The notes under the pieces: generated by a model
What the model saw: the letters and a program-made list of their open reading frames with translations, nothing else
Databases searched by the model: none
What the model was told of the DNA's origin: nothing
Origin: Muricea muricata
Lineage: Eukaryota; Cnidaria; Anthozoa; Malacalcyonacea; Plexauridae
DNA: 64,000 bases
Assembly (NCBI GenBank): GCA_963855995.1
Contig: OY979718.1
Location: forward strand, 38,563,059-38,627,058
Reading direction: 5' to 3'
Made by a program: the position numbers and the translations under genes
In this document: positions 33,041-64,000 of the stretch, one piece after another
How positions within the stretch are numbered: position 1 is the stretch's first letter
Layout of the letters: each line of letters begins with the position of its first letter

Positions 33041-33047
33041 ACATTCA

Positions 33048-33760: not shown

Positions 33761-34229
33761 AAAGCTCTTTTATAGCTACCATTAAGTTTTATAAGACAGT
33801 TTGCTACCAGTACTTACACATAAGATGCAACCGTATCGGATTGTGATACATGATAAACAAGGTCATTTCTCCACAATCTCATTTCTCCAATACCATCCCA
33901 TTCCTTTTTTACAATTAAGCGTCTTGATGGCAAGTCCTCCTATGGATCCTCCTTGTTTGAAACAATGGATAAATTCTGCACCAGTTCAACATCCTGATAA
34001 TATATAACCACACAGTCCTAATAAATGTAGCAAAAATTCCCACAGTTAAGTCCTTGAACAACAGGTGTGTGCTTGCAATGGCCGTCCAAAATTATGATTT
34101 AAAACTATAGATATAAGCAGCGGGCTGTAAAAATTATATTATTATTTAATGCATGTATGATTTTGTAATTATTTTTTAATAATATTATATAATGCAGCAA
34201 CAAGAGAGCATATAATATTTAACTTGCAT

Positions 34230-35880: not shown

Positions 35881-35910
35881 CCCTGCATTCACACAGATAC
35901 ATAGAAGGAA

Positions 35911-39767: not shown

Positions 39768-41712
39768 TGATTTACGATCTGTGATGATTTAAAACTTCCT
39801 CTGACCAAATACTTGTATACCGCGAGATATCAGTTATAATTTACAGTATTGAATAACAATTGTTTATGTGTAAACCTGAAGCGTTAATTATATTAGCATA
39901 AAATTTTCTATAAAGTATAAAGTAATATGAAATTCCAAAATTGCCTGGTTGATGTTACATCTTGCAAAATTACAAACTACCATTTAACATATAGTACATA
40001 TACATTCAAATCTACTTACATGTTAGGCGTAATTTAAATGCTTGTTGCCAAACTTATGTCGGAACGTAAGAAGTAATTTATCTAGAATAAGGAAAGAATA
40101 GTAAACTTGTCAACGAACGGAAAAAAGGAATCCATATCATAATCAATATGTCACATGGCTAGTCACATGAGCGAAAATAGCGCCAAAATAAATTTATGTG
40201 TATACTGTGTAGGTAATTTATATTAAGACATTTATCACGGTATCTATGTATTTAATCATATTGTTCATGTTTTGTAAGCTCCCTACATACCATACTTATT
40301 CACGCAAGATAACAAATAAATTGGAAGTTATAAAGAATGAGAAGGTAGGAAAAATGGAAAGAAGACTGGCGGAATTTCTAGAGTAGAGCAGACTAAAATT
40401 GGGGGATAAAAGTTAAAAGATGCTGAAGGTAGCAATAGAGCGATGAAAATAGTAATAGAATAACTTAAAATTCGTGGGAAGACAATAGTAGAAGCACGAT
40501 CGAAATAGGTACATAATGGTAAGATGTTGAACGAAGCAACAGAAAGATGAAAAATTATAACAAAATCACAATAAGATTTCTGGAAAAGAGACTAGAACGG
40601 AATCTGTGAGAGAGGACTACTGGGAACAAAGTTAAAACTGAATAAATAGAAGCAAGTTTAAAAGATGCACAGAAGGAAGTTGTTGAAAAGATTATGGTAG
40701 AAAGATGAAAGTAGAAACATAGAAAGAGAAAGATGAATATAATTATGTTGAAAATTATGAGAAATTAAGGAGATGAACAGATAGAAAGAGGAATAGAAGA
40801 ATTAGAATAGAACTCACAAACGACGATAAAAGTTGAAACTGGCGAGAAATTAGCGAGAGGAAGATGAAATGTACAGTGCGAATTGGTATGGAAAAAACTA
40901 TTGGAGACAAGCTCAGAACCGAATATAAAAAAATCTAAGAAGTTAGACAATATAAGAAGTCAAAGAACAAGAATTGGAAATTGTTGAGAAGACTATATAT
41001 AGTAGGACTGAAATAAGTAACAACAGAGAGATAAATAGATAAAAAAGGAAGAAAGAATAATAGAAGATTAGAAATTGTGGAGAAGACTAGTAGAAGCAAG
41101 CCTGGAATAGGAAGATGAAACAGCACAATGCGAAAAGTTAGCAACAGAAAGACGAAAAATGTAAGTTGAAAATGATGAGAAGACTACTCAAAACAAGGTT
41201 GGAACAGAATATGAAGAAGCAGGCTCAGAATTTCAGATAATATAGAAAGACGAATACAAGATTATATATAGATATAGATATAGATGTAAATAGGAAAAGA
41301 GCTGGAACAGGTGGATAAAAGAAGTAAAATGTGGAAAGGTTGAAACAGAAAGACGAAAAATAGATTTAAAATTATGGGAAGACTACAGGAAACAAGGTTA
41401 GAAGCGAATGTGAAGAAGGAAGCTGAGAAGATAGGAAAACACGGAAAGAACAACACAAGAATTGGAAATTTCTGGGAAGACTGTAGTAGAAGCAAGACTG
41501 GAAGACTAGAATAGGAAGAAAAAAGCAGCGAAATATGGAACGGTTGAAACAGAAAGACGAAAAATATATTGAATATTGCAAGAACACTACTGGAGACAAG
41601 GTTAGAAGCGTGTGTGAAAAAGGAAACTGAGAGGAAAAGGAAGGATGGAAGGAAGAACAGAAAGACTCGAAACAGAAACACGAAAAATAGACAATGTGCA
41701 TAGATATACAAT
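39768..41712 (+). repeat. Satellite unit U3 (1945 bp, deleted)
   Basis: Same CGGAATCTG|TGAGAGAGG deletion junction as U2 (about 40603), with an otherwise full right end. It lacks CACGTG (CACATG). It marks the change from diverged edge to homogeneous core. Confidence 0.9.
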
Positions 41713-44218
41713 TGATTTACGATCTGTGATGATTTAAAACTTCCTCTGACCAAATACTTGTATAGAGGGAGATATGAGTTATAATATAGAGTATTGAATA
41801 AGATTTGTTTATGTGTAAACCTGAAGCGATAATTATATTAGCATAAAATTTTCTATAAAGTATAAAGTAATATGAAATTCCAAAATTGCCTGTTTGATGT
41901 TACATGTTGCAAAATTACAAACTACCATTTAACATATAGTACATATACATTCAAATCTACTTACATGTTAGGCGTAATTTAAATGCTTGTTGCCAAACTT
42001 ATGTCGGAACGTAAGAAGTAATTTATCTGGAATAAGGAAAGCATAGTAAACTTGTCAGCGAACAGAAAAAAGGAATCCATATCATAATCAATATGTCACA
42101 TGGCTAGTCACGTGAGAGAAAATAGCGCCAAAATAAATTTATGTGTATACTGCGTAGGTAATTTATATTAAGACATTTATCACGGTATCTATGTATTTAA
42201 TCATATTGTTCATGTTTTGTAAGCTCCCTACATACCATACTTATTCACGCAAGATAACAAATAAATTGGAAGTTGTAAAGAATGAGAAGGTAGGAAAAAT
42301 GGAAAGAAGACTGGCGGAATTTCTAGAGTAGAGCCGACTAAAATTGGGGGATAAAAGTTAAAAGATGCTGAAGGTAGCAATAGAGCGATGAAAATAGTAA
42401 TAGAATAACTTAAAATTCGTGGGAAGACAATAGTAGAAGCACGATCGAAATAGGTACATAATGGTAAGATGTTGAACGAAGCAACAGAAAGATGAAAAAT
42501 TATAACAAAATCACAATAAGATTTCTGGGAAAGTCACTAGAACGGAATCTGAAGACGAAGACGGAAAAGATGGAAAGAAAGTTGCAGGATTGGAAAGAAG
42601 AAAATTGTGACGATGAAAAAGATGGAAAGATGATTTAAAGAATTTGAAATCATTGGGAAGCCTACAGCAAAAGGACTGAAATTGGAGGATAAAAGCAAAA
42701 AGATGAGGAAAGTAGCAATAAGAAGATGAAAAATAGATGGAAAGCTGTGAGGGAAGACTAATGGAAACAACGTTAGAAACGAATCTAAAGAAGCAAGCTG
42801 AGAAGATGGAAAAAATTGAAGAAGATTTTACGGTTGTTGAAACATCCAAAGTAGGAAGATGAAAGTAGGAATATACTAGAAATAACAAAAAGATGAATAC
42901 ATATTGAAAATTGCAAGAAGACCACTAGAAGGAAGTTTAGCAGTGTAAGTTAAAGAAACAAATTGAGAAGATGAGAAACATGAAGAGACTCGAATAAAAG
43001 AATTGGAAATCGTCGAGAAGACTACAGCGGATCCGGAAGAGCTTACATGGAAAGATAGAAGGGAAAAGACGAAAAAAGTTGCAATAAGAACACGAAAAAT
43101 AGATTGAAAATTGTGAGAGAGGACTACTGGGAACAAAGTTAAAACTGAATATAAAAGCAAGTTTAAAAGATGCACAGAAGGAAGTTGTTGAAAAGATTAT
43201 GGTAGAAAGATGAAAGTAGAAACATAGAAAGAGAAAGATGAATATAATTATATTGAAAATTATGAGAAATTAAGGAGATGAACAGATAGAAAGAGGAATA
43301 GAAGAATTAGAATAGAACTCACAAACGACGATAAAAGTGGAAACTGGCGAGAAATTAGCGAGAGGAAGATGAAATGTACAGTGCGAAATGGTATGGAAAA
43401 AACTATTGGAGACAAGCTCAGAACCGAATAAAAAAAAATCTAAGAAGTTAGACAATATAAGAAGTCAAAGAACAAGAATTGGAAATTGTTGAGAAGACTA
43501 TATATAGTAGGACTGAAATAAGTAACAACAGAGCGATAAATAGATAAAAAAAGGAAGAAAGAATAATAGAAGATTAGAAATTGTGGAGAAGACTGGTAGA
43601 AGCAAGCCTGGAATAGGAAGATGAAACAGCACAATGCGAAAAGTTAGCAACAGAAAGACGAAAAATGTAAGTTGAAAATGATGAGAAGACTACTCAAAAC
43701 AAGGTTGGAACAGAATATGAAGAAGCAGGCTCAGAATTTCAGATAATATAGAAAGACGAATACAAGATTATATATAGATATAGATATAGATGTAAATAGG
43801 AAAAGAGCTGGAACAGGTGGATAAAAGAAGTAAAATGTGGAAAGGTTGAAACAGAAAGACGAAAAATAGATTTAAAATTATGGGAAGACTACAGGAAACA
43901 AGGTTAGAAGCGAATGTGAAGAAGGAAGCTGAGAAGATAGGAAAACACGGAAAGAACAACACAAGAATTGGAAATTTCTGGGAAGACTGTAGTAGAAGCA
44001 AGACTGGAATACTAGAATAGGAAGAAAAAAGCAGCGAAATATGGAACGGTTGAAACAGAAAGACGAAAAATATATTGAATATTGCAAGAACACTACTGGA
44101 GACAAGGTTAGAAGCGTGTGTGAAAAAGGAAACTGAGAAGAAAGGGAAGGATGGAAGGAAGAACAGAAAGACTCGAAACAGAAACACGAAAAATAGACAA
44201 TGTGCATAGATATACAAT
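41713..44218 (+). repeat. Satellite unit U4, type A (2506 bp)
   Basis: Type A markers: TAAGAAGT present twice around TAGACAATA, GAGACTCGAATAAAAG, and TTGTGAGAGAGGAC. Its GTTGAAACATCC variant is shared only with U6. Confidence 0.93.
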
Positions 44219-46710
44219 TGATTTACGATCTGTGATGATTTAAAACTTCCTCTGACCAAATACTTGTATAGAGGGAGATATGAGTTATAATATAGAGTAT
44301 TGAATAAGATTTGTTTATGTGTAAACCTGAAGCGATAATTATATTAGCATAAAATTTTCTATAAAGTATAAAGTAATATGAAATTCCAAAATTGCCTGTT
44401 TGATGTTACATCTTGCAAAATTACAAACTACCATTTAACATATAGTACATATACATTCAAATCTACTTACATGTTAGGCGTAATTTAAATGCTTGTTGCC
44501 AAACTTATGTCGGAACGTAAGAAGTAATTTATCTGGAATAAGGAAAGCATAGTAAACTTGTCAGCGAACAGAAAAAAGGAATCCATATCATAATCAATAT
44601 GTCACATGGCTAGTCACGTGAGAGAAAATAGCGCCAAAATAAATTTATGTGTATACTGCGTAGGTAATTTATATTAAGACATTTATCACGGTATCTATGT
44701 ATTTAATCATATTGTTCATGTTTTGTAAGCTCCCTACATACCATACTTATTCACGCAAGATAACAAATAAATTGGAAGTTGTAAAGAATGAGAAGGTAGG
44801 AAAAATGGAAAGAAGACTGGCGGAATTTCTACAGTAGAGCAGACTAAAATTGGGGGATAAAAGTTAAAAGATGCTGAAGGTAGCGATAGAGCGATGAAAA
44901 TAGTAATAGAATAACTTAAAATTCGTGGGAAGACAATAGTAGAAGCACGATCGAAATAGGTACATAATGGTAAGATGTTGAACGAAGCAACAGAAAGATG
45001 AAAAATTATAACAAAATCACAATAAGATTTCTGGAAAAGAGACTACAACGGAATCTGAAGACGAAGACTGAAAAGATGGAAAGAAAGTTGCAGGATTGGA
45101 AAGAAGAAAATTGTGACGATGAAAAAGATGGAAAGATGATTTAAAGAATTGGAAATCATTGGGAAGCCTACAGCAAAAGGACTGAAATTGGAGGATAAAA
45201 GCAAAAAGATGAGGAAAGTAGCAATAAGAAGATGAAAAATAGATGGAAAGTTGTGAGGGAAGACTAATGGAAACAACGTTAGAAACGAATCTAAAGAAGC
45301 AAGCTGAAAAGATGGAAAAAATTGAAGAAGATTTTACGGTTGTTGAAAAGATCAAAGTAGGAAGATGAAAGTAGGAATATACTAGAAATAACAAAAAGAT
45401 GAATATATATTGAAAATTGCAAGAAGACCACTAGAAGGAAGTTTAGCAGTGTAAGTTAAAGAAACAAATTGAGAAGATGAGAAACATGAAGAGAGTCAAA
45501 TAAAAGAATTGGAAATCGTCGAGAAGATTACAGCGGATCCGGAAGGGCTTATGTGCAAAGATAGAAGAAAGACGATGAAGAAAGTTGCAATAAGAACACG
45601 AAAAATAGATTGAAAATTCTGAGAGACGACTACTGGGAACAAAGTTTAAACTGAATATAAAAGCAAGTTTAAAAGATGCACAGAAGGAAGTTGTTGAAAA
45701 GATTATGGTAGAAAGATGAAAGTAGAAACATAGAAAGAGAAAGATGAATATAATTATATTGAAAATTATGAGAAATTAAGGAGATGAACAGATAGAAAGA
45801 GGAATAGAAGAATTAGAATAGAACTCACAAACGACGATAAAAGTGGAAACTGGCGAGAAATTAGCGAGAGGAAGATGAAATGTACAGTGCGAAATGGTAT
45901 GGAAAAAACTACTGGAGACAAGCTCAGAACGGAATATAAAAAAATCTAAGAAGTCAAAGAACAAGAATTGGAAATTGTTGAGAAGACTATATATAGTAGG
46001 ACTGAAATAAGTAACAACAGAGAGATAAATAGATAAAAAAAAGGAAGAAAGAATAATAGAAGATTAGAAATTGTGGAGAAGACTGGTAGAAGCAAGCCTG
46101 GAATAGGAAGATGGAACAGCACAATGCGAAAAGTTAAGCAACAGAAAGACGAAAAATGTAAGTTGAAAATGATGAGAAGACTACTCAAAACAAGGTTGGA
46201 ACAGAATATGAAGAAGCAGGCTCAGAATTTCAGATAATATAGAAAGACGAATACAAGATTATATATAGATATAGATATAGATGTAAATAGGAAAAGAGCT
46301 GGAACAGGTGGATAAAAGAAGTAAAATGTGGAAAGGTTGAAACAGAAAGACGAAAAATAGATTTAAAATTATGGGAAGACTACAGGAAACAAGGTTAGAA
46401 GCGAATGTGAAGAAGGAAGCTGAGAAGATAGGAAAACACGGAAAGAACAACACAAGAATTGGAAATTTCTGGGAAGACTGTAGTAGAAGCAAGACTGGAA
46501 GACTAGAATAGGAAAAAAAAAAGCAGCGAAATATGGAATGGTTGTTACAGAAAGACGAAAAATATATTGAATATTGCAAGAACACTACTGGAGACAAGGT
46601 TAGAAGCGTGTGTGAAAAAGGAAACTGAGAAGAAAAGGAAGGATGGAAGGAAGAACAGAAAGACTCGAAACAGAAACACGAAAAATAGACAATGTGCATA
46701 GATATACAAT
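44219..46710 (+). repeat. Satellite unit U5, type B (2492 bp)
   Basis: Type B markers: one TAAGAAGT copy, GAGAGTCAAATAAAAG, and TTCTGAGAGACGAC. The right end has the GGAATGGTTGTTACAG variant with a longer A-run. Confidence 0.93.
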
Positions 46711-49216
46711 TGATTTACGATCTGTGATGATTTAAAACTTCCTCTGACCAAATACTTGTATAGAGGGAGATATGAGTTATAATATAGAGTATTGAATAAG
46801 ATTTGTTTATGTGTAAACCTGAAGCGATAATTATATTAGCATAAAATTTTCTATAAAGTATAAAGTAATATGAAATTCCAAAATTGCCTGTTTGATGTTA
46901 CATGTTGCAAAATTACAAACTACCATTTAACATATAGTACATATACATTCAAATCTACTTACATGTTAGGCGTAATTTAAATGCTTGTTGCCAAACTTAT
47001 GTCGGAACGTAAGAAGTAATTTATCTGGAATAAGGAAAGCATAGTAAACTTGTCAGCGAACAGAAAAAAGGAATCCATATCATAATCAATATGTCACATG
47101 GCTAGTCACGTGAGAGAAAATAGCGCCAAAATAAATTTATGTGTATACTGCGTAGGTAATTTATATTAAGACATTTATCACGGTATCTATGTATTTAATC
47201 ATATTGTTCATGTTTTGTAAGCTCCCTACATACCATACTTATTCACGCAAGATAACAAATAAATTGGAAGTTGTAAAGAATGAGAAGGTAGGAAAAATGG
47301 AAAGAAGACTGGCGGAATTTCTAGAGTAGAGCCGACTAAAATTGGGGGATAAAAGTTAAAAGATGCTGAAGGTAGCAATAGAGCGATGAAAATAGTAATA
47401 GAATAACTTAAAATTCGTGGGAAGACAATAGTAGAAGCACGATCGAAATAGGTACATAATGGTAAGATGTTGAACGAAGCAACAGAAAGATGAAAAATTA
47501 TAACAAAATCACAATAAGATTTCTGGGAAAGTCACTAGAACGGAATCTGAAGACGAAGACGGAAAAGATGGAAAGAAAGTTGCAGGATTGGAAAGAAGAA
47601 AATTGTGACGATGAAAAAGATGGAAAGATGATTTAAAGAATTTGAAATCATTGGGAAGCCTACAGCAAAAGGACTGAAATTGGAGGATAAAAGCAAAAAG
47701 ATGAGGAAAGTAGCAATAAGAAGATGAAAAATAGATGGAAAGCTGTGAGGGAAGACTAATGGAAACAACGTTAGAAACGAATCTAAAGAAGCAAGCTGAG
47801 AAGATGGAAAAAATTGAAGAAGATTTTACGGTTGTTGAAACATCCAAAGTAGGAAGATGAAAGTAGGAATATACTAGAAATAACAAAAAGATGAATACAT
47901 ATTGAAAATTGCAAGAAGACCACTAGAAGGAAGTTTAGCAGTGTAAGTTAAAGAAACAAATTGAGAAGATGAGAAACATGAAGAGACTCGAATAAAAGAA
48001 TTGGAAATCGTCGAGAAGACTACAGCGGATCCGGAAGAGCTTACATGGAAAGATAGAAGGGAAAAGACGAAAAAAGTTGCAATAAGAACACGAAAAATAG
48101 ATTGAAAATTGTGAGAGAGGACTACTGGGAACAAAGTTAAAACTGAATATAAAAGCAAGTTTAAAAGATGCACAGAAGGAAGTTGTTGAAAAGATTATGG
48201 TAGAAAGATGAAAGTAGAAACATAGAAAGAGAAAGATGAATATAATTATATTGAAAATTATGAGAAATTAAGGAGATGAACAGATAGAAAGAGGAATAGA
48301 AGAATTAGAATAGAACTCACAAACGACGATAAAAGTGGAAACTGGCGAGAAATTAGCGAGAGGAAGATGAAATGTACAGTGCGAAATGGTATGGAAAAAA
48401 CTATTGGAGACAAGCTCAGAACCGAATAAAAAAAAATCTAAGAAGTTAGACAATATAAGAAGTCAAAGAACAAGAATTGGAAATTGTTGAGAAGACTATA
48501 TATAGTAGGACTGAAATAAGTAACAACAGAGCGATAAATAGATAAAAAAAGGAAGAAAGAATAATAGAAGATTAGAAATTGTGGAGAAGACTGGTAGAAG
48601 CAAGCCTGGAATAGGAAGATGAAACAGCACAATGCGAAAAGTTAGCAACAGAAAGACGAAAAATGTAAGTTGAAAATGATGAGAAGACTACTCAAAACAA
48701 GGTTGGAACAGAATATGAAGAAGCAGGCTCAGAATTTCAGATAATATAGAAAGACGAATACAAGATTATATATAGATATAGATATAGATGTAAATAGGAA
48801 AAGAGCTGGAACAGGTGGATAAAAGAAGTAAAATGTGGAAAGGTTGAAACAGAAAGACGAAAAATAGATTTAAAATTATGGGAAGACTACAGGAAACAAG
48901 GTTAGAAGCGAATGTGAAGAAGGAAGCTGAGAAGATAGGAAAACACGGAAAGAACAACACAAGAATTGGAAATTTCTGGGAAGACTGTAGTAGAAGCAAG
49001 ACTGGAATACTAGAATAGGAAGAAAAAAGCAGCGAAATATGGAACGGTTGAAACAGAAAGACGAAAAATATATTGAATATTGCAAGAACACTACTGGAGA
49101 CAAGGTTAGAAGCGTGTGTGAAAAAGGAAACTGAGAAGAAAGGGAAGGATGGAAGGAAGAACAGAAAGACTCGAAACAGAAACACGAAAAATAGACAATG
49201 TGCATAGATATACAAT
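46711..49216 (+). repeat. Satellite unit U6, type A (2506 bp)
   Basis: Almost identical to U4, including GTTGAAACATCC; U4-U5 and U6-U7 look like a duplicated ~5-kb block. Confidence 0.93.
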
Positions 49217-51707
49217 TGATTTACGATCTGTGATGATTTAAAACTTCCTCTGACCAAATACTTGTATAGAGGGAGATATGAGTTATAATATAGAGTATTG
49301 AATAAGATTTGTTTATGTGTAAACCTGAAGCGATAATTATATTAGCATAAAATTTTCTATAAAGTATAAAGTAATATGAAATTCCAAAATTGCCTGTTTG
49401 ATGTTACATCTTGCAAAATTACAAACTACCATTTAACATATAGTACATATACATTCAAATCTACTTACATGTTAGGCGTAATTTAAATGCTTGTTGCCAA
49501 ACTTATGTCGGAACGTAAGAAGTAATTTATCTGGAATAAGGAAAGCATAGTAAACTTGTCAGCGAACAGAAAAAAGGAATCCATATCATAATCAATATGT
49601 CACATGGCTAGTCACGTGAGAGAAAATAGCGCCAAAATAAATTTATGTGTATACTGCGTAGGTAATTTATATTAAGACATTTATCACGGTATCTATGTAT
49701 TTAATCATATTGTTCATGTTTTGTAAGCTCCCTACATACCATACTTATTCACGCAAGATAACAAATAAATTGGAAGTTGTAAAGAATGAGAAGGTAGGAA
49801 AAATGGAAAGAAGACTGGCGGAATTTCTACAGTAGAGCAGACTAAAATTGGGGGATAAAAGTTAAAAGATGCTGAAGGTAGCGATAGAGCGATGAAAATA
49901 GTAATAGAATAACTTAAAATTCGTGGGAAGACAATAGTAGAAGCACGATCGAAATAGGTACATAATGGTAAGATGTTGAACGAAGCAACAGAAAGATGAA
50001 AAATTATAACAAAATCACAATAAGATTTCTGGAAAAGAGACTACAACGGAATCTGAAGACGAAGACTGAAAAGATGGAAAGAAAGTTGCAGGATTGGAAA
50101 GAAGAAAATTGTGACGATGAAAAAGATGGAAAGATGATTTAAAGAATTGGAAATCATTGGGAAGCCTACAGCAAAAGGACTGAAATTGGAGGATAAAAGC
50201 AAAAAGATGAGGAAAGTAGCAATAAGAAGATGAAAAATAGATGGAAAGTTGTGAGGGAAGACTAATGGAAACAACGTTAGAAACGAATCTAAAGAAGCAA
50301 GCTGAAAAGATGGAAAAAATTGAAGAAGATTTTACGGTTGTTGAAAAGATCAAAGTAGGAAGATGAAAGTAGGAATATACTAGAAATAACAAAAAGATGA
50401 ATATATATTGAAAATTGCAAGAAGACCACTAGAAGGAAGTTTAGCAGTGTAAGTTAAAGAAACAAATTGAGAAGATGAGAAACATGAAGAGAGTCAAATA
50501 AAAGAATTGGAAATCGTCGAGAAGATTACAGCGGATCCGGAAGGGCTTATGTGCAAAGATAGAAGAAAGACGATGAAGAAAGTTGCAATAAGAACACGAA
50601 AAATAGATTGAAAATTCTGAGAGACGACTACTGGGAACAAAGTTTAAACTGAATATAAAAGCAAGTTTAAAAGATGCACAGAAGGAAGTTGTTGAAAAGA
50701 TTATGGTAGAAAGATGAAAGTAGAAACATAGAAAGAGAAAGATGAATATAATTATATTGAAAATTATGAGAAATTAAGGAGATGAACAGATAGAAAGAGG
50801 AATAGAAGAATTAGAATAGAACTCACAAACGACGATAAAAGTGGAAACTGGCGAGAAATTAGCGAGAGGAAGATGAAATGTACAGTGCGAAATGGTATGG
50901 AAAAAACTACTGGAGACAAGCTCAGAACGGAATATAAAAAAATCTAAGAAGTCAAAGAACAAGAATTGGAAATTGTTGAGAAGACTATATATAGTAGGAC
51001 TGAAATAAGTAACAACAGAGAGATAAATAGATAAAAAAAAGGAAGAAAGAATAATAGAAGATTAGAAATTGTGGAGAAGACTGGTAGAAGCAAGCCTGGA
51101 ATAGGAAGATGGAACAGCACAATGCGAAAAGTTAAGCAACAGAAAGACGAAAAATGTAAGTTGAAAATGATGAGAAGACTACTCAAAACAAGGTTGGAAC
51201 AGAATATGAAGAAGCAGGCTCAGAATTTCAGATAATATAGAAAGACGAATACAAGATTATATATAGATATAGATATAGATGTAAATAGGAAAAGAGCTGG
51301 AACAGGTGGATAAAAGAAGTAAAATGTGGAAAGGTTGAAACAGAAAGACGAAAAATAGATTTAAAATTATGGGAAGACTACAGGAAACAAGGTTAGAAGC
51401 GAATGTGAAGAAGGAAGCTGAGAAGATAGGAAAACACGGAAAGAACAACACAAGAATTGGAAATTTCTGGGAAGACTGTAGTAGAAGCAAGACTGGAATA
51501 CTAGAATAGGAAGAAAAAAGCAGCGAAATATGGAACGGTTGAAACAGAAAGACGAAAAATATATTGAATATTGCAAGAACACTACTGGAGACAAGGTTAG
51601 AAGCGTGTGTGAAAAAGGAAACTGAGAGGAAAAGGAAGGATGGAAGGAAGAACAGAAAGACTCGAAACAGAAACACGAAAAATAGACAATGTGCATAGAT
51701 ATACAAT
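49217..51707 (+). repeat. Satellite unit U7, type B (2491 bp)
   Basis: Left part matches U5, but the right end has the GGAACGGTTGAAACAG variant, so it is a mosaic of U5-like and U3/U4-like ends. Confidence 0.93.
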
Positions 51708-54213
51708 TGATTTACGATCTGTGATGATTTAAAACTTCCTCTGACCAAATACTTGTATAGAGGGAGATATGAGTTATAATATAGAGTATTGAATAAGATT
51801 TGTTTATGTGTAAACCTGAAGCGATAATTATATTAGCATAAAATTTTCTATAAAGTATAAAGTAATATGAAATTCCAAAATTGCCTGTTTGATGTTACAT
51901 CTTGCAAAATTACAAACTACCATTTAACATATAGTACATATACATTCAAATCTACTTACATGTTAGGCGTAATTTAAATGCTTGTTGCCAAACTTATGTC
52001 GGAACGTAAGAAGTAATTTATCTGGAATAAGGAAAGCATAGTAAACTTGTCAGCGAACAGAAAAAAGGAATCCATATCATAATCAATATGTCACATGGCT
52101 AGTCACGTGAGAGAAAATAGCGCCAAAATAAATTTATGTGTATACTGCGTAGGTAATTTATATTAAGACATTTATCACGGTATCTATGTATTTAATCATA
52201 TTGTTCATGTTTTGTAAGCTCCCTACATACCATACTTATTCACGCAAGATAACAAATAAATTGGAAGTTGTAAAGAATGAGAAGGTAGGAAAAATGGAAA
52301 GAAGACTGGCGGAATTTCTAGAGTAGAGCCGACTAAAATTGGGGGATAAAAGTTAAAAGATGCTGAAGGTAGCAATAGAGCGATGAAAATAGTAATAGAA
52401 TAACTTAAAATTCGTGGGAAGACAATAGTAGAAGCACGATCGAAATAGGTACATAATGGTAAGATGTTGAACGAAGCAACAGAAAGATGAAAAATTATAA
52501 CAAAATCACAATAAGATTTCTGGGAAAGTCACTAGAACGGAATCTGAAGACGAAGACGGAAAAGATGGAAAGAAAGTTGCAGGATTGGAAAGAAGAAAAT
52601 TGTGACGATGAAAAAGATGGAAAGATGATTTAAAGAATTGGAAATCATTGGGAAGCCTACAGCAAAAGGACTGAAATTGGAGGATAAAAGCAAAAAGATG
52701 AGGAAAGTAGCAATAAGAAGATGAAAAATAGATGGAAAGCTGTGAGGGAAGACTAATGGAAACAACGTTAGAAACGAATCTAAAGAAGCAAGCTGAGAAG
52801 ATGGAAAAAATTGAAGAAGATTTTACGGTTGTTGAAAAATCCAAAGTAGGAAGATGAAAGTAGGAATATACTAGAAATAACAAAAAGATGAATACATATT
52901 GAAAATTGCAAGAAGACCACTAGAAGGAAGTTTAGCAGTGTAAGTTAAAGAAACAAATTGAGAAGATGAGAAACATGAAGAGACTCGAATAAAAGAATTG
53001 GAAATCGTCGAGAAGACTACAGCGGATCCGGAAGAGCTTACATGGAAAGATAGAAGGAAAAAGATGAAAAAAGTTGCAATAAGAACACGAAAAATAGATT
53101 GAAAATTGTGAGAGAGGACTACTGGGAACAAAGTTGAAACTGAATATAAAAGCAAGTTTAAAAGATGCACAGAAGGAAGTTGTTGAAAAGATTATGGTAG
53201 AAAGATGAAAGTAGAAACATAGAAAGAGAAAGATGAATATAATTATGTTGAAAATTATGAGAAATTAAGGAGATGAACAGATAGAAAGAGGAATAGAAGA
53301 ATTAGAATAGAACTCACAAACGACGATAAAAGTGGAAACTGGCGAGAAATTAGCGAGAGGAAGATGAAATGTACAGTGCGAAATGGTATGGAAAAAACTA
53401 TTGGAGACAAGCTCAGAACCGAATAAAAAAAAATCTAAGAAGTTAGACAATATAAGAAGTCAAAGAACAAGAATTGGAAATTGTTGAGAAGACTATATAT
53501 AGTAGGACTGAAATAAGTAACAACAGAGCGATAAATAGATAAAAAAAGGAAGAAAGAATAATAGAAGATTAGAAATTGTGGAGAAGACTGGTAGAAGCAA
53601 GCCTGGAATAGGAAGATGAAACAGCACAATGCGAAAAGTTAGCAACAGAAAGACGAAAAATGTAAGTTGAAAATGATGAGAAGACTACTCAAAACAAGGT
53701 TGGAACAGAATATGAAGAAGCCGGCTCAGAATTTCAGATAATATAGAAAGACGAATACAAGATAATATATAGATATAGATATAGATGTAAATAGGAAAAG
53801 AGCTGGAACAGGTGGATAAAAGAAGTAAAATGTGGAAAGGTTGAAACAGAAAGACGAAAAATAGATTTAAAATTATGGGAAGACTACAGGAAACAAGGTT
53901 AGAAGCGAATGTGAAGAAGGAAGCTGAGAAGATAGGAAAACACGGAAAGAACAACACAAGAATTGGAAATTTCTGGGAAGACTGTAGTAGAAGCAAGACT
54001 GGAATACTAGAATAGGAAGAAAAAAGCAGCGAAATATGGAACGGTTGAAACAGAAAGACGAAAAATATATTGAATATTGCAAGAACACTACTGGAGACAA
54101 GGTTAGAAGCGTGTGTGAAAAAGGAAACTGAGAGGAAAAGGAAGGATGGAAGGAAGAACAGAAAGACTCGAAACAGAAACACGAAAAATAGACAATGTGC
54201 ATAGATATACAAT
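51708..54213 (+). repeat. Satellite unit U8, type A (2506 bp)
   Basis: Type A with GTTGAAAAATCC in place of the U4/U6 variant, and AAGCCGGCTCAG near its right end, shared with U11 and (as GAGCCGGCTCAG) U9. Confidence 0.93.
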
Positions 54214-56721
54214 TGATTTACGATCTGTGATGATTTAAAACTTCCTCTGACCAAATACTTGTATAGAGGGAGATATGAGTTATAATATAGAGTATTGAAT
54301 AAGATTTGTTTATGTGTAAACCTGAAGCGATAATTATATTAGCATAAAATTTTCTATAAAGTATAAAGTAATATGAAATTCCAAAATTGCCTGTTTGATG
54401 TTACATCTTGCAAAATTACAAACTACCATTTAACATATAGTACATATACATTCAAATCTACTTACATGTTAGGCGTAATTTAAATGCTTGTTGCCAAACT
54501 TATGTCGGAACGTAAGAAGTAATTTATCTGGAATAAGGAAAGCATAGTAAACTTGTCAGCGAACAGAAAAAAGGAATCCATATCATAATCAATATGTCAC
54601 ATGGCTAGTCACGTGAGAGAAAATAGCGCCAAAATAAATTTATGTGTATACTGCGTAGGTAATTTATATTAAGACATTTATCACGGTATCTATGTATTTA
54701 ATCATATTGTTCATGTTTTGTAAGCTCCCTACATACCATACTTATTCACGCAAGATAACAAATAAATTGGAAGTTGTAAAGAATGAGAAGGTAGGAAAAA
54801 TGGAAAGAAGACTGGCGGAATTTCTAGAGTAGAGCCGACTAAAATTGGGGGATAAAAGTTAAAAGATGCTGAAGGTAGCAATAGAGCGATGAAAATAGTA
54901 ATAGAATAACTTAAAATTCGTGGGAAGACAATAGTAGAAGCACGATCGAAATAGGTACATAATGGTAAGATGTTGAACGAAGCAACAGAAAGATGAAAAA
55001 TTATAACAAAATCACAATAAGATTTCTGGGAAAGTCACTAGAACGGAATCTGAAGACGAAGACGGAAAAGATGGAAAGAAAGTTGCAGGATTGGAAAGAA
55101 GAAAATTGTGACGATGAAAAAGATGGAAAGATGATTTAAAGAATTGGAAATCATTGGGAAGCCTACAGCAAAAGGACTGAAAATTGGAGGATAAAAGCAA
55201 AAAGATGAGGAAAGTAGCAATAAGAAGATGAAAAATAGATGGAAAGCTGTGAGGGAAGACTAATGGAAACAACGTTAGAAACGAATCTAAAGAAGCAAGC
55301 TGAGAAGATGGAAAAAATTGAAGAAGATTTTACGGTTGTTGAAAAATCCAAAGTAGGAAGATGAAAGTAGGAATATACTAGAAATAACAAAAAGATGAAT
55401 ACATATTGAAAATTGCAAGAAGACCACTAGAAGGAAGTTTAGCAGTGTAAGTTAAAGAAACAAATTGAGAAGATGAGAAACATGAAGAGACTCGAATAAA
55501 AGAATTGGAAATCGTCGAGAAGACTACAGCGGATCCGGAAGAGCTTACATGGAAAGATAGAAGGAAAAAGATGAAAAAAGTTGCAATAAGAACACGAAAA
55601 ATAGATTGAAAATTGTGAGAGAGGACTACTGGGAACAAAGTTGAAACTGAATATAAAAGCAAGTTTAAAAGATGCACAGAAGGAAGTTGTTGAAAAGATT
55701 ATGGTAGAAAGATGAAAGTAGAAACATAGAAAGAGAAAGATGAATATAATTATGTTGAAAATTATGAGAAATTAAGGAGATGAACAGATAGAAAGAGGAA
55801 TAGAAGAATTAGAATAGAACTCACAAACGACGATAAAAGTGGAAACTGGCGAGAAATTAGCGAGAGGAAGATGAAATGTACAGTGCGAAATGGTATGGAA
55901 AAAACTATTGGAGACAAGCTCAGAACCGAATAAAAAAAAATCTAAGAAGTTAGACAATATAAGAAGTCAAAGAACAAGAATTGGAAATTGTTGAGAAGAC
56001 TATATATAGTAGGACTGAAATAAGTAACAACAGAGCGATAAATAGATAAAAAAAGGAAGAAAGAATAATAGAAGATTAGAAATTGTGGAGAAGACTGGTA
56101 GAAGCAAGCCTGGAATAGGAAGATGAAACAGCACAATGCGAAAAGTTAGCAACAGAAAGACGAAAAATGTAAGTTGAAAATGATGAGAAGACTACTCAAA
56201 ACAAGGTTGGAACAGAATATGAAGGAGCCGGCTCAGAATTTCAGATAATATAGAAAGACGAATACAAGATAATATATAGATATAGATATAGATGTAAATA
56301 GGAAAAGAGCTGGAACAGGTGGATAAAAGAAGTAAAATGTGGAAAGGTTGAAACAGAAAGACGAAAAATAGATTTAAAATTATGGGAAGACTACAGGAAA
56401 CAAGGTTAGAAGCGAATGTGAAGAAGGAAGCTGAGAAGATAGGAAAACACGGAAAGAACAACACAAGAACTGGAAATTGCTGGGAAGACTGTAGTAGAAG
56501 CAAGACTGGAAGACTAGAATAGGAAAAAAAAAAGCAGCGAAATATGGAATGGTTGTTACAGAAAGACGAAAAATATATTGAATATTGCAAGAACACTACT
56601 GGAGACAAGGTTAGAAGCGTGTGTGAAAAAGGAAACTGAGAAGAAAAGGAAGGATGGAAGGAAGAACAGAAAGACTCGAAACAGAAACACGAAAAATAGA
56701 CAATGTGCATAGATATACAAT
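54214..56721 (+). repeat. Satellite unit U9, type A (2508 bp)
   Basis: A second A in succession, breaking the A-B alternation. It has one extra A in CTGAAAATTGGAGG and the B-like right-end variant GGAATGGTTGTTACAG. Confidence 0.93.
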
Positions 56722-59213
56722 TGATTTACGATCTGTGATGATTTAAAACTTCCTCTGACCAAATACTTGTATAGAGGGAGATATGAGTTATAATATAGAG
56801 TATTGAATAACATTTGTTTATGTGTAAACCTGAAGCGATAATTATATTAGCATAAAATTTTCTATAAAGTATAAAGTAATATGAAATTCCAAAATTGCCT
56901 GGTTGATGTTACATCTTGCAAAATTACAAACTACCATTTAACATATAGTACATATACATTCAAATCTACTTACATGTTAGGCGTAATTTAAATGCTTGTT
57001 GCCAAACTTATGTCGGAACGTAAGAAGTAATTTATCTAGAATAAGAAAAGCATAGTAAACTTGTCAGCGAACAGAAAAAAGGAATCCATATCATAATCAA
57101 TATGTCACATGGCTAGTCACGTGAGACAAAAAAGCGCCAAAATAAATTTATGTGTATACTGCGTAGGTAATTTATATTAAGACATTTATCACGGTATCTA
57201 TGTATTTAATCATATTGTTCATGTTTTGTAAGCTCCCTACATACCATACTTATTCACGCAAGATAACAAATAAATTGGAAGTTGTAAAGAATGAGAAGGT
57301 AGGAAAAATGGAAAGAAGACTGGCGGAATTTCTAGAGTAGAGCAGACTAAAATTGGGGGATAAAAGTTAAAAGATGCTGAAGGTAGCAATAGAGCGATGA
57401 AAATAGTAATAGAATAACTTAAAATTCGTGGGAAGACAATAGTAGAAGCACGATCGAAATAGGTACATAATGGTAAGATGTTTAACGAAGCAACAGAAAG
57501 ATGAAAAATTATAACAAAATCACAATAAGATTTCTGGAAAAGTCACTAGAACGGAATCTGAAGACGAAGACTGAAAAGATGGAAAGAAAGTTGCAGGATT
57601 GGAAAGAAGAAAATTGTGACGATGAAAAAGATGGAAAGATGATTTAAAGAATTGGAAATCATTGGGAAGCCTACAGCAAAAGGACTGAAATTGGAGGATA
57701 AAAGCAAAAAGATGAGGAAAGTAGCAATAAGAAGATGAAAAATAGATGGAAAGCTGTGAGGGAAGACCAATAGAAACAACGTTAGAAACGAATCTAAAGA
57801 AGCAAGCTGAAAAGATGGAAAAAATTGAAGAAGATTTTACGGTTGTTGAAAAGATCAAAGTAGGAAGATGAAAGTAGGAATATACTAGAAATAACAAAAA
57901 GATGAATATATATTGAAAATTGCAAGAAGACCACTAGAAGGAAGTTTAGCAGTGTAAGTTAAAGAAACAAATTGAGAAGATGAGAAACATGAAGAGAGTC
58001 AAATAAAAGAATTGGAAATCGTCGAGAAGATTACAGCGGATCCGGAAGGGCTTATGTGCAAAGATAGAAGAAAGACGATGAAGAAAGTTGCAATAAGAAC
58101 ACGAAAAATAGATTGAAAATTCTGAGAGACGACTACTGGGAACAAAGTTTAAACTGAATATAAAAGCAAGTTTAAAAGATGCACAGAAGGAAGTTGTTGA
58201 AAAGATTATGGTAGAAAGATGAAAGTAGAAACATAGAAAGAGAAAGATGAATATAATTATATTGAAAATTATGAGAAATTAAGGAGATGAACAGATAGAA
58301 AGAGGAATAGAAGAATTAGAATAGAACTCACAAACGACGATAAAAGTGGAAACTGGCGAGAAATTAGCGAGAGGAAGATGAAATGTACAGTGCGAAATGG
58401 TATGGAAAAAACTACTGGAGACAAGCTCAGAACCGAATATAAAAAAATCTAAGAAGTCAAAGAACAAGAATTGGAAATTGTTGAGAAGACTATATATAGT
58501 AGGACTGAAATAAGTAACAACAGAGCGATAAATAGATAAAAAAAAGGAAGAAAGAATAATAGAAGATTAGAAATTGTGGAGAAGACTGGTAGAAGCAAGC
58601 CTGGAATAGGAAGATGGAACAGCACAATGCGAAAAGTTAAGCAACAGAAAGACGAAAAATGTAAGTTGAAAATGATGAGAAGACTACTCAAAACAAGGTT
58701 GGAACAGAATATGAAGAAGCAGGCTCAGAATTTCAGATAATATAGAAAGACGAATACAAGATAATATATAGATATAGATATAGATGTAAATAGGAAAAGA
58801 GCTGGAACAGGTGGATAAAAGAAGTAAAATGTGGAAAGGTTGAAACAGAAAGACGAAAAATAGATTTAAAATTATGGGAAGACTACAGGAAACAAGGTTA
58901 GAAGCGAATGTGAAGAAGGAAGCTGAGAAGATTGGAAAACACGGAAAGAACAACACAAGAATTGGAAATTGCTGGGAAGACTGTAGTAGAAGCAAGACTG
59001 GAAGACTAGAATAGGAAAAAAAAAAGCAGCGAAATATGGAATGGTTGTTACAGAAAGACGAAAAATATATTGAATATTGCAAGAACACTACTGGAGACAA
59101 GGTTAGAAGCGTGTGTGAAAAAGGAAACTGAGAAGAAAAGGAAGGATGGAAGGAAGAACAGAAAGACTCGAAACAGAAACACGAAAAATAGACAATGTGC
59201 ATAGATATACAAT
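56722..59213 (+). repeat. Satellite unit U10, type B (2492 bp)
   Basis: Type B. It carries AAGACCAATAGAAAC where earlier units have AAGACTAATGGAAAC; U11 and U12 share this. Confidence 0.93.
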
Positions 59214-61720
59214 TGATTTACGATCTGTGATGATTTAAAACTTCCTCTGACCAAATACTTGTATAGAGGGAGATATGAGTTATAATATAGAGTATTGAAT
59301 AACATTTGTTTATGTGTAAACCTGAAGCGATAATTATATTAGCATAAAATTTTCTATAAAGTATAAAGTAATATGAAATTCCAAAATTGCCTGGTTGATG
59401 TTACATCTTGCAAAATTACAAACTACCATTTAACATATAGTACATATACATTCAAATCTACTTACATGTTAGGCGTAATTTAAATGCTTGTTGCCAAACT
59501 TATGTCGGAACGTAAGAAGTAATTTATCTAGAATAAGAAAAGCATAGTAAACTTGTCAGCGAACAGAAAAAAGGAATCCATATCATAATCAATATGTCAC
59601 ATGGCTAGTCACGTGAGACAAAAAAGCGCCAAAATAAATTTATGTGTATACTGCGTAGGTAATTTATATTAAGACATTTATCACGGTATCTATGTATTTA
59701 ATCATATTGTTCATGTTTTGTAAGCTCCCTACATACCATACTTATTCACGCAAGATAACAAATAAATTGGAAGTTGTAAAGAATGAGAAGGTAGGAAAAA
59801 TGGAAAGAAGACTGGCGGAATTTCTAGAGTAGAGCAGACTAAAATTGGGGGATAAAAGTTAAAAGATGCTGAAGGTAGCAATAGAGCGATGAAAATAGTA
59901 ATAGAATAACTTAAAATTCGTGGGAAGACAATAGTAGAAGCACGATCGAAATAGGTACATAATGGTAAGATGTTTAACGAAGCAACAGAAAGATGAAAAA
60001 TTATAACAAAATCACAATAAGATTTCTGGAAAAGTCACTAGAACGGAATCTGAAGACGAAGACTGAAAAGATGGAAAGAAAGTTGCAGGATTGGAAAGAA
60101 GAAAATTGTGACGATGAAAAAGATGGAAAGATGATTTAAAGAATTGGAAATCATTGGGAAGCCTACAGCAAAAGGACTGAAATTGGAGGATAAAAGCAAA
60201 AAGATGAGGAAAGTAGCAATAAGAAGATGAAAAATAGATGGAAAGCTGTGAGGGAAGACCAATAGAAACAACGTTAGAAACGAATCTAAAGAAGCAAGCT
60301 GAAAAGATGGAAAAAATTGAAGAAGATTTTACGGTTGTTGAAAAGATCAAAGTAGGAAGATGAAAGTAGGAATATACTAGAAATAACAAAAAGATGAATA
60401 TATATTGAAAATTGCAAGAAGACCACTAGAAGGAAGTTTAGCAGTGTAAGTTAAAGAAACAAATTGAGAAGATGAGAAACATGAAGAGACTCGAATAAAA
60501 GAATTGGAAATCGTCGAGAAGACTACAGCGGATCCGGAAGAGCTTACATGGAAAGATAGAAGGAAAAAGATGAAAAAAGTTGCAATAAGAACACGAAAAA
60601 TAGATTGAAAATTGTGAGAGAGGACTACTGGGAACAAAGTTGAAACTGAATATAAAAGCAAGTTTAAAAGATGCACAGAAGGAAGTTGTTGAAAAGATTA
60701 TGGTAGAAAGATGAAAGTAGAAACATAGAAAGAGAAAGATGAATATAATTATGTTGAAAATTATGAGAAATTAAGGAGATGAACAGATAGAAAGAGGAAT
60801 AGAAGAATTAGAATAGAACTCACAAACGACGATAAAAGTGGAAACTGGCGAGAAATTAGCGAGAGGAAGATGAAATGTACAGTGCGAAATGGTATGGAAA
60901 AAACTATTGGAGACAAGCTCAGAACCGAATAAAAAAAAATCTAAGAAGTTAGACAATATAAGAAGTCAAAGAACAAGAATTGGAAATTGTTGAGAAGACT
61001 ATATATAGTAGGACTGAAATAAGTAACAACAGAGCGATAAATAGATAAAAAAAGGAAGAAAGAATAATAGAAGATTAGAAATTGTGGAGAAGACTGGTAG
61101 AAGCAAGCCTGGAATAGGAAGATGAAACAGCACAATGCGAAAAGTTAGCAACAGAAAGACGAAAAATGTAAGTTGAAAATGATGAGAAGACTACTCAAAA
61201 CAAGGTTGGAACAGAATATGAAGAAGCCGGCTCAGAATTTCAGATAATATAGAAAGACGAATACAAGATAATATATAGATATAGATATAGATGTAAATAG
61301 GAAAAGAGCTGGAACAGGTGGATAAAAGAAGTAAAATGTGGAAAGGTTGAAACAGAAAGACGAAAAATAGATTTAAAATTATGGGAAGACTACAGGAAAC
61401 AAGGTTAGAAGCGAATGTGAAGAAGGAAGCTGAGAAGATAGGAAAACACGGAAAGAACAACACAAGAATTGGAAATTGCTGGGAAGACTGTAGTAGAAGC
61501 AAGACTGGAAGACTAGAATAGGAAAAAAAAAAGCAGCGAAATATGGAATGGTTGTTACAGAAAGACGAAAAATATATTGAATATTGCAAGAACACTACTG
61601 GAGACAAGGTTAGAAGCGTGTGTGAAAAAGGAAACTGAGAAGAAAAGGAAGGATGGAAGGAAGAACAGAAAGACTCGAAACAGAAACACGAAAAATAGAC
61701 AATGTGCATAGATATACAAT
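59214..61720 (+). repeat. Satellite unit U11, type A with B-like left part (2507 bp)
   Basis: The left part matches U10 (AAGACCAATAGAAAC, GTTGAAAAGATC) while the right part has type A markers (GAGACTCGAATAAAAG, doubled TAAGAAGT), placing an exchange point near 60.4-60.5 kb. Confidence 0.92.
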
Positions 61721-64000
61721 TGATTTACGATCTGTGATGATTTAAAACTTCCTCTGACCAAATACTTGTATAGAGGGAGATATGAGTTATAATATAGAGT
61801 ATTGAATAACATTTGTTTATGTGTAAACCTGAAGCGATAATTATATTAGCATAAAATTTTCTATAAAGTATAAAGTAATATGAAATTCCAAAATTGCCTG
61901 GTTGATGTTACATCTTGCAAAATTACAAACTACCATTTAACATATAGTACATATACATTCAAATCTACTTACATGTTAGGCGTAATTTAAATGCTTGTTG
62001 CCAAACTTATGTCGGAACGTAAGAAGTAATTTATCTAGAATAAGAAAAGCATAGTAAACTTGTCAGCGAACAGAAAAAAGGAATCCATATCATAATCAAT
62101 ATGTCACATGGCTAGTCACGTGAGACAAAAAAGCGCCAAAATAAATTTATGTGTATACTGCGTAGGTAATTTATATTAAGACATTTATCACGGTATCTAT
62201 GTATTTAATCATATTGTTCATGTTTTGTAAGCTCCCTACATACCATACTTATTCACGCAAGATAACAAATAAATTGGAAGTTGTAAAGAATGAGAAGGTA
62301 GGAAAAATGGAAAGAAGACTGGCGGAATTTCTAGAGTAGAGCAGACTAAAATTGGGGGATAAAAGTTAAAAGATGCTGAAGGTAGCAATAGAGCGATGAA
62401 AATAGTAATAGAATAACTTAAAATTCGTGGGAAGACAATAGTAGAAGCACGATCGAAATAGGTACATAATGGTAAGATGTTTAACGAAGCAACAGAAAGA
62501 TGAAAAATTATAACAAAATCACAATAAGATTTCTGGAAAAGTCACTAGAACGGAATCTGAAGACGAAGACTGAAAAGATGGAAAGAAAGTTGCAGGATTG
62601 GAAAGAAGAAAATTGTGACGATGAAAAAGATGGAAAGATGATTTAAAGAATTGGAAATCATTGGGAAGCCTACAGCAAAAGGACTGAAATTGGAGGATAA
62701 AAGCAAAAAGATGAGGAAAGTAGCAATAAGAAGATGAAAAATAGATGGAAAGCTGTGAGGGAAGACCAATAGAAACAACGTTAGAAACGAATCTAAAGAA
62801 GCAAGCTGAAAAGATGGAAAAAATTGAAGAAGATTTTACGGTTGTTGAAAAGATCAAAGTAGGAAGATGAAAGTAGGAATATACTAGAAATAACAAAAAG
62901 ATGAATATATATTGAAAATTGCAAGAAGACCACTAGAAGGAAGTTTAGCAGTGTAAGTTAAAGAAACAAATTGAGAAGATGAGAAACATGAAGAGAGTCA
63001 AATAAAAGAATTGGAAATCGTCGAGAAGATTACAGCGGATCCGGAAGGGCTTATGTGCAAAGATAGAAGAAAGACGATGAAGAAAGTTGCAATAAGAACA
63101 CGAAAAATAGATTGAAAATTCTGAGAGACGACTACTGGGAACAAAGTTTAAACTGAATATAAAAGGAAGTTTAAAAGATGCACAGAAGGAAGTTGTTGAA
63201 AAGATTATGGTAGAAAGATGAAAGTAGAAACATAGAAAGAGAAAGATGAATATAATTATATTGAAAATTATGAGAAATTAAGGAGATGAACAGATAGAAA
63301 GAGGAATAGAAGAATTAGAATAGAACTCACAAACGACGATAAAAGTGGAAACTGGCGAGAAATTAGCGAGAGGAAGATGAAATGTACAGTGCGAAATGGT
63401 ATGGAAAAAACTACTGGAGACAAGCTCAGAACCGAATATAAAAAAATCTAAGAAGTCAAAGAACAAGAATTGGAAATTGTTGAGAAGACTATATATAGTA
63501 GGACTGAAATAAGTAACAACAGAGAGATAAATAGATAAAAAAAAGGAAGAAAGAATAATAGAAGATTAGAAATTGTGGAGAAGACTGGTAGAAGCAAGCC
63601 TGGAATAGGAAGATGGAACAGCACAATGCGAAAAGTTAAGCAACAGAAAGACGAAAAATGTAAGTTGAAAATGATGAGAAGACTACTCAAAACAAGGTTG
63701 GAACAGAATATGAAGAAGCAGGCTCAGAATTTCAGATAATATAGAAAGACGAATACAAGATTATATATAGATATAGATATAGATGTAAATAGGAAAAGAG
63801 CTGGAACAGGTGGATAAAAGAAGTAAAATGTGGAAAGGTTGAAACAGAAAGACGAAAAATAGATTTAAAATTATGGGAAGACTACAGGAAACAAGGTTAG
63901 AAGCGAATGTGAAGAAGGAAGCTGAGAAGATAGGAAAACACGGAAAGAACAACACAAGAATTGGAAATTTCTGGGAAGACTGTAGTAGAAGCAAGACTGG
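61721..64000 (+). repeat. Satellite unit U12, type B, cut by window end
   Basis: Type B markers throughout, nearly identical to U10. The sequence stops ~210 bp before the expected next anchor. Confidence 0.92.

What the first reader, a model, noticed from the sequence alone, without database searches (positions are those of the whole stretch)
41713..64000. Two-form satellite with a ~4998-bp higher-order period
Seen: anchor spacings alternate 2506/2492 and the two unit forms differ by a consistent marker set. The A+B pair repeats at 41713 to 46711 (4998), 46711 to 51708 (4997) and 56722 to 61721 (4999). Long higher-order repeats are known for alpha satellite; a 2.5-kb monomer paired into a 5-kb unit in an invertebrate-like genome is unusual. 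A role at a centromere, sex chromosome or heterochromatin block is inference.
Basis: partly seen in the sequence, partly recalled or inferred. Interest (0 to 1): 0.75.

Follow-up and report, generated by a model that had tools for sequence, protein, structure and literature searches.

The report
Expanded purine-rich macrosatellite, partly paired
A block of about 59 near-identical 2.5-kb non-coding repeats is the overgrown body of one of nine related loci in this genome; its 5-kb pairing is real but only local, and looks like a by-product of how such arrays copy themselves.

Summary
Alternation is confined to 30 units (24 of 29 neighbours differ; runs test z=3.3); the right part shows no dimer. 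A-B pairs average 98.4% identity, same-form pairs 99.5%, overlapping; markers recombine along the unit, as expected from unequal exchange and gene conversion rather than a fixed higher-order repeat.

The array is the body of one member of a family. A non-repeated 5' probe (32480-32900) has nine matches in the 453-Mb genome, on C2, C3 and C8. All nine are followed, on the same strand, by leader repeats and by purine-rich repeats; an AT-rich core lies between them in the seven places sampled. Bodies are expanded with different periods. Most likely a strand-polar non-coding locus family prone to expansion; transcription and R-loops are inferred, not shown. No support for a centromere role. Species unidentified.

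The parts
30600..31100 (+). Upstream block shared with the other family loci (probe); true left limit not found
   Evidence: 16 matches, at all nine family places (two copies at several of them) plus C3:37.63 Mb. At 25400-25900 no match at a family place was listed, but only 40 of 539 candidates were scored.
32362..32955 (+). Non-repeated 5' element
   Evidence: probe 32480-32900 has 9 matches (all 9 candidates scored): C2 x3, C3 x3, C8 x3. Alignment of 4 copies. Homology goes on leftward at 62-75%.
32983..35311 (+). Leader: degenerate short tandem repeats rich in TATA-like words on the + strand
   Evidence: the same leader at C8 is a clean 111-115-bp repeat.
35600..36211 (+). AT-rich core, leader-linked (proximal) copy
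   Evidence: 82% to C2:20.33; core found in all 7 sampled family places.
35901..38044 (+). Diverged edge copy of the whole unit (overlaps the proximal core)
   Evidence: 86.4% over 2184 bp to unit u4.
38092..39768 (+). Unit u0, shortened (1677 bp)
39769..41713 (+). Unit u1, shortened (1945 bp)
41714..44219 (+). Unit u2, form A (2506 bp)
44220..46711 (+). Unit u3, form B (2492 bp)
46712..49217 (+). Unit u4, form A (2506 bp), identical to u2; first ~560 bp AT-rich core, remainder 68-78% purine
49218..51708 (+). Unit u5, form B (2491 bp)
51709..54214 (+). Unit u6, form A (2506 bp); start of the A-A break in alternation
54215..56722 (+). Unit u7, form A (2508 bp); second unit of the A-A break
56723..59214 (+). 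Unit u8, form B (2492 bp); identical to u17 and u23 beyond the window
59215..61721 (+). Unit u9, form A by length (2507 bp) but mosaic: 99.2% to u8 (B), 98.7% to u2 (A)
61722..64000 (+). Unit u10, form B, cut by the window end (2491 bp in the genome)

Best explanation
The feature is a macrosatellite: the purine-rich body of one member of a nine-copy, gene-like, non-coding locus family, expanded in place to about 59 units (148 kb). Family loci read 5' element - TATA-rich leader repeats - AT-rich core - purine-rich tract of degenerate repeats, on one strand. Here a unit of core + purine tract was multiplied by unequal exchange and kept alike by gene conversion; the A/B pairing marks a duplicated pair that spread through part of the array, and it breaks where exchange slipped by an odd number of units. 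Most likely (inferred) the leader drives transcription into the array, giving a purine-rich RNA that pairs stably with its pyrimidine-rich template (R-loops), and this makes each locus prone to local expansion. Shown: anatomy, copy number, order, strand polarity, mosaicism, different tandem periods at paralogous loci. Inferred: transcription, R-loops, any benefit to the host. The confidence given is for the whole chain; the structural part alone I hold at about 0.85.
For: 59 anchored units, all + strand, about 148 kb; 14 identical unit pairs and larger repeated blocks; local lag-2 signal and 25 runs vs 16; A/B agreement of 45 marker columns 0.87-1.0 around columns 1699-1923 but 0.63-0.83 towards both unit ends. 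Nine 5' elements in the genome, each upstream, same strand, of leader matches and purine repeats (seven places by composition; C8 second and third copy by pattern). Core between leader and purine tract in 7 of 7 sampled places, 66-86%. Bodies expanded with different periods: 2.5 kb here; 16 listed copies ~6109 bp apart at C3:19.2; three leaders ~8 kb apart at C3:40.3; 170 bp x 12.6 inside C8. TATAWAW on the + strand of the leader above the maximum of 100 shuffles in 6 of 6 stretches tested, from 4 places. RNA of human RNA:DNA hybrids is purine-rich (PMC4647656, passages).
Against: No RNA data of any kind. TATA-like words are cheap in AT-rich DNA, copies of a repeat are not independent, and the - strand count was also above shuffles in two of six stretches (C3:40 a and b). 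Transversions are not suppressed in the purine tract (ts/tv 0.97-1.39 in 6 comparisons, leader 1.51-1.56 in 3, core 0.83-1.12 in 3), so nothing shows selection for purine content. Leader, core and purine tract could be carried together merely by duplication, as could the upstream block, which also occurs once without the rest (C3:37.63). No match to an RNA family in the locus.
Confidence: 0.45

Rival explanations
1. Neutral macrosatellite: segmental duplication scattered nine copies of a repeat-rich block, and tandem bodies grew and shrank by unequal exchange alone, without transcription or use.
For: All array features are accounted for by unequal exchange and conversion; ts/tv gives no sign of constraint; C8 looks like a 77-kb segment in three copies; the upstream block is duplicated as well.
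Against: Order and polarity are kept in the seven sampled places despite 66-86% identity; the core is mostly 82-93% alike between loci against 61-91% in the purine tract; TATA-like words face the purine tract. None of this is decisive.
Confidence: 0.38
2. Centromeric, pericentromeric or sex-chromosome satellite with a true higher-order repeat.
For: A large homogeneous array with local dimers; position at about 64% of C3 would suit a submetacentric chromosome.
Against: Related loci are at three places each on C2 and C3, 5-19 Mb apart or more, except 38.6/40.3; no other chromosome but C8 showed a 5' element; gene pieces near the array; period not array-wide.
Confidence: 0.06
3. Degenerate transposable element or former coding repeat that was tandemly amplified.
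For: Multi-locus copies with a shared 5' region; other tandem arrays are known to arise from mobile elements (recalled).
Against: No Pfam match in four long - strand frames of the array or the one + strand frame sent; frames on + in the consensus at most 62 aa, - 137 aa; 17-bp and 1-bp indels between forms; nine loci only, always with the same multi-kb context. Ends of an element were not found, so this is not excluded.
Confidence: 0.08
4. Assembly artefact (mis-joined or over-expanded repeat).
For: Near-identical units are hard to assemble; no reads could be inspected.
Against: No N; subfamilies in orderly blocks and diverged material on both edges, as in real arrays; further arrays at related loci.
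Confidence: 0.03

Closest known systems
Macrosatellites (human SST1, DXZ4)
   Same: Multi-kb non-coding units (SST1 2.4-2.5 kb, DXZ4 3 kb), tens of near-identical head-to-tail copies at one or few loci; SST1 monomers >99% alike within an array, 97-98% between arrays (PMC3018141, PMC8122249, PMC6985041; passages).
   Different: DXZ4 is CpG-rich; this unit is AT-rich with a 68-78% purine strand. Here paralogous loci share a 5' element and leader but have bodies of different period.
Higher-order repeat satellites (alpha satellite; dimeric HORs of beetles; potato 2D8, 5.9 kb of two ~3-kb monomers)
   Same: Adjacent forms amplified together; 2D8 is close in unit size and dimer arrangement (PMC5615363, PMC8122249; passages).
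   Different: Forms differ by 1.6% on average instead of the 10-30% given for alpha satellite HORs; the dimer covers 30 of 59 units and is broken five times.
Immunoglobulin switch regions (mechanistic likeness only, recalled)
   Same: Promoter upstream of kb-long, strand-asymmetric purine-rich tandem repeats that could form R-loops and recombine.
   Different: No immunoglobulin context seen, lower GC, promoter and R-loops not shown here. Not filed as a member.

Membership tests
Macrosatellite | Unit of one to several kb repeated head to tail | tested here: met
   59 anchors, most spacings 2491-2511 bp, all + strand.
Macrosatellite | High identity between units within the array | tested here: met
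   u2-u57 97.7-100%, mean 98.65%.
Macrosatellite | Copy number varies between individuals | not testable with these tools
   One assembly only.
Higher-order repeat (HOR) | Same-position monomers of neighbouring multimers more alike than monomers within a multimer | tested here: met
   In u2-u31 only: lag-2 99.26%, lag-1 98.59%.
Higher-order repeat (HOR) | Multimer repeats regularly over the array | tested here: not met
   Five breaks in 29 steps; u32-u58 without a dimer signal tested in u37-u57.
Higher-order repeat (HOR) | Clearly diverged monomers (70-90% within a multimer, as given for alpha satellite) | tested here: not met
   A-B pairs 97.9-99.7%, mean 98.4%; same-form 98.1-100%, mean 99.5%.
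Centromeric satellite | CENP-A occupancy | not testable with these tools
   No chromatin data.
Centromeric satellite | Same satellite at one place on most chromosomes | tested here: not met
   5' element on three contigs only, three places each; chromosome-specific centromeres would escape this test.
Transcribed long non-coding RNA locus | Transcripts | not testable with these tools
   No RNA data; TATA-like enrichment only.
Transcribed long non-coding RNA locus | No long coding frame or protein family in the transcribed strand | tested here: met
   Longest + frame in the unit consensus 62 aa; a 120-aa + frame at C3:19.2 has no Pfam match.

The most novel reading that the evidence does not exclude
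Nine paralogous, strand-polar non-coding genes with tandem TATA-box leaders drive transcription of giant purine-rich RNAs; R-loops on their bodies make each locus expand on its own, so that macrosatellites arise repeatedly, in different unit sizes, from one gene family.
Probability: 0.15. Interest if true: 0.75.

Novelty: new variant of a known kind. Interest (0 to 1): 0.42.

Why it matters
It turns an isolated satellite into a comparative system: nine related loci in one genome share a head and a kind of body, yet the bodies seen so far are expanded with different periods (170 bp inside C8, 2.5 kb here, 6.1 kb at C3:19.2, about 8 kb at C3:40.3, a 77-kb segment on C8). That allows a direct test of whether promoter-driven, purine-skewed sequence is what makes macrosatellites arise. 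It also shows how a short window of alternating units can look like a higher-order repeat while being a passing stage of unequal exchange.

Tried and rejected
Coding origin: the + strand of the unit consensus has no frame above 62 aa; the pyrimidine-rich - strand has frames up to 217 aa because it is poor in stops. Four of those - frames and a 120-aa + frame at C3:19.2 have no Pfam match at E<=0.01; the other frames were not sent. Short frames of the 5' element meet stops in several homologous copies. Known RNA: one tRNA hit far from the array at gathering level in the whole window, and one sub-threshold hit (E 0.77) in 31.5-44.2 kb; ARAGORN found none. Selection for purine content through suppressed transversions: not seen; divergence may be too low to tell. 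A regular sub-repeat period in the unit by ungapped autocorrelation: weak, best 204 bp; gapped self-alignment shows old internal repeats at 59-68% (9 pairs vs 0-2 in 10 windowed shuffles). Pfam on 10 frames of the left flank, of those listed: three matches, all below cut-off. Species: common telomere words absent from the 3 kb fetched at each end of C3, the left one beginning with withheld N; COX1 is on C74 but could not be fetched. A likeness of the flanking reverse transcriptases to cnidarian ones is recalled, not tested.
Full report
WHAT WAS CHECKED. A conserved anchor occurs 11 times in the window; spacings are 1677, 1945, 2506, 2492, 2506, 2491, 2506, 2508, 2492 and 2507. u2 and u4 are identical over 2506 bp, u3 and u5 99.76%; within the window A-B pairs are 98.07-99.20% and same-form pairs 98.68-100%. 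The ranges overlap because u9 is mixed (99.20% to u8, a B unit).

THE WHOLE ARRAY. The window lies at C3:38563059-38627058 of a 453-Mb genome in 74 contigs. With 200 kb more to the right, 59 anchors lie on the + strand over about 148 kb, edge copy included, with no N and no anchor on the other strand. Units u2-u57 are 97.7-100% identical, mean 98.65%. By length, u2-u31 are 15 A and 15 B, u32-u36 are a 2498/2501 class, and 21 of 22 units u37-u58 are 2505-2511 bp. In u2-u31, 24 of 29 neighbours differ (25 runs, 16.0 expected, z=3.3); identity at lag 2 exceeds chance (99.26 vs 98.93%, P=0.003) while lag 1 is below it (P=0.0014); lag 6 is also raised (P=0.033). In u37-u57 lag 1 is highest (99.65%) and lags 2 and 3 are raised too (P=0.02, 0.004), which is plain nearness, not a dimer (5000 order shuffles each). 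u0, u1, u32-u36 and u58 were left out of these tests. The eight complete units in the window alone give P=0.056. So the 5-kb period is real but local.

HOW THE PAIRING AROSE. Fourteen pairs of units are identical in the alignment, for instance u8=u17=u23 and u12=u18=u24. Of 45 informative columns in u2-u31 (two states, rarer one in at least 4 of 30 units, no gaps), those at alignment columns 1699-1923 agree with the A/B label at 0.87-1.0, those at 88-412 and 2239-2440 only at 0.63-0.83. Over u2-u31 same-form pairs average 99.50% (98.12-100, n=210) and A-B pairs 98.40% (97.87-99.72, n=225). The forms are mosaics: unequal exchange moved blocks of two or three units, and conversion or crossover within units mixed them. 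This is inference from pattern; it needs no function.

THE UNIT. About 560 bp are AT-rich without much skew; the remaining ~1950 bp are 68-78% purine on the + strand. In 300-bp running windows 73% of positions in 36.0-185.3 kb of the extended sequence exceed 0.66 purine, against 0.0000 of positions in the flanks taken as control (0.3-32 kb and 190-263.7 kb); purine-rich pockets reach 189.3 kb, in a stretch left out of both sets. The purine part holds old internal repeats, seen cleanly at a paralogue as a 170-bp repeat, 12.6 copies. No frame is open on + beyond 62 aa in the consensus.

THE FAMILY. A 58-bp core pattern with up to 3 mismatches matches 58 times at this array (57 of the 59 anchored units and the edge copy) and once on C2; a related 55-bp version also finds C2:13.36 and three sites at C3:40.27-40.29. 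A 41-bp purine pattern has 113 hits of which the listed ones (the list is cut) are all on C2 and C3, including a second array of 16 listed copies about 6109 bp apart at C3:19.20-19.29 Mb. A 201-bp leader probe has 74 matches, at C2:7.57, 13.35, 20.34; C3:19.19, 38.60, 40.27/40.28/40.29; C8:1.77, 1.85, 1.93. A 421-bp non-repeated 5' probe has nine matches, one ahead of each of these places (a single one for the three C3:40.27-40.29 leaders), on the same strand as the leader (the tool calls its counts lower bounds, but all 9 candidates were scored). Purine-rich sequence follows on that strand at all nine: seven by composition of fetched stretches, the second and third C8 copies by an 11-hit pattern. 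The AT-rich core lies between leader and purine tract in 7 of 7 places sampled, at 66-86% identity, weakest at C3:19.2 and C8. Whole loci were never fetched. On C8 the leader is a run of 111-115-bp repeats, each with two TATATAAA-type words read by eye; six 1-kb samples between the first two C8 copies are not purine-rich, so C8 looks like a 77-kb segment in three copies. Homology upstream continues to at least 30.6 kb in the window, at all nine places and at one more, C3:37.63 Mb, where neither 5' element nor leader was found. A probe at 25.4-25.9 kb had one other full-length match, C3:40.19 Mb, and otherwise a short dispersed repeat, but only 40 of 539 candidates were scored.

SIGNS OF FUNCTION, FOR AND AGAINST. 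For: TATAWAW on the + strand of the leader exceeds every one of 100 dinucleotide shuffles in 6 of 6 stretches tested, from 4 of the places (window 24 vs mean 10.4; C8a 79 vs 10.8); 50-bp windows of the core are mostly 0.82-0.93 alike between loci, those of the purine tract 0.61-0.91 (first core window 0.68). Against: - strand counts are raised too in two of six; repeat copies are not independent; ts/tv gives no sign that purine content is selected (leader 1.51-1.56, core 0.83-1.12, purine 0.97-1.39; 12 comparisons); no RNA family. [quoted passage not shown] Transcription from the leader would thus give R-loop-prone RNA; this is my inference.

NEIGHBOURHOOD. Of ten frames from the right flank sent to Pfam (of the larger list), five have matches above cut-off - SprT-like with Peptidase_C48, P2RX7_C, RVT_1, Galactosyl_T, HSL_N - one has RVT_1 below cut-off and four have none. 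The HSL_N frame also matches a solved hormone-sensitive lipase at E 1.9e-10. The array thus lies within about 15-65 kb of ordinary gene and retrotransposon pieces, though only about 80 kb were seen on that side; ten frames of the left flank gave nothing above cut-off.

WHAT IS KNOWN. Macrosatellites with 2.4-2.5-kb units (SST1) and 3-kb units (DXZ4) are in print (PMC3018141, PMC8122249, PMC6985041; passages). Dimeric HORs in beetles and a 5.9-kb potato repeat made of two ~3-kb monomers are in print (PMC5615363, PMC8122249; passages). So neither unit size nor pairing is new. The listings of seven searches showed no title or abstract start about a family in which a shared TATA-rich head precedes differently expanded purine-rich bodies; only the five papers named here were opened, in passages, the library lacks most subscription journals, and the species is unknown.

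VERDICT. Real feature, larger than described; higher-order claim partly right; centromere reading unsupported.

Noticed in passing
G000 contigs C1, C2, C3, C8: Very uneven chromosome sizes: C1 at least 105.8 Mb, C2 71.7 and C3 60.7 Mb, but C8 14.6 Mb; the family lies on two of the large ones and C8.
   Followed up: no
C3:19203243-19294908: A second array related to this one: 16 listed copies of a purine motif about 6109 bp apart, with leader and core upstream.
   Followed up: partly
C8:1.765-1.931 Mb: Upstream block, 5' element, leader and purine repeats recur three times about 77-79 kb apart, as if a long segment were triplicated.
   Followed up: partly
window 1782-2522, 3926-4366: Tandem repeats of about 146-151 bp (73-75% alike) and 157 bp (94%) far left of the array.
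   Followed up: no
window 17997-18077: tRNA match at 31 bits (gathering 29) that ARAGORN does not see; neighbouring sequence recurs in the window (18210-18282 at 9282 and 19012), so perhaps tRNA-derived repeats.
   Followed up: no
C1:38414782-38416095: A nearly intact COX1 copy (443-aa open stretch, one TAA) in the nuclear genome, besides the one on C74.
   Followed up: no
L023, reverse complement 5107-5582: The core at C2:20.33 Mb is split by a ~475-bp insert not found in the other cores aligned.
   Followed up: no
L020:5726-6268: Long dinucleotide-like runs giving repetitive frames in the right flank.
   Followed up: no
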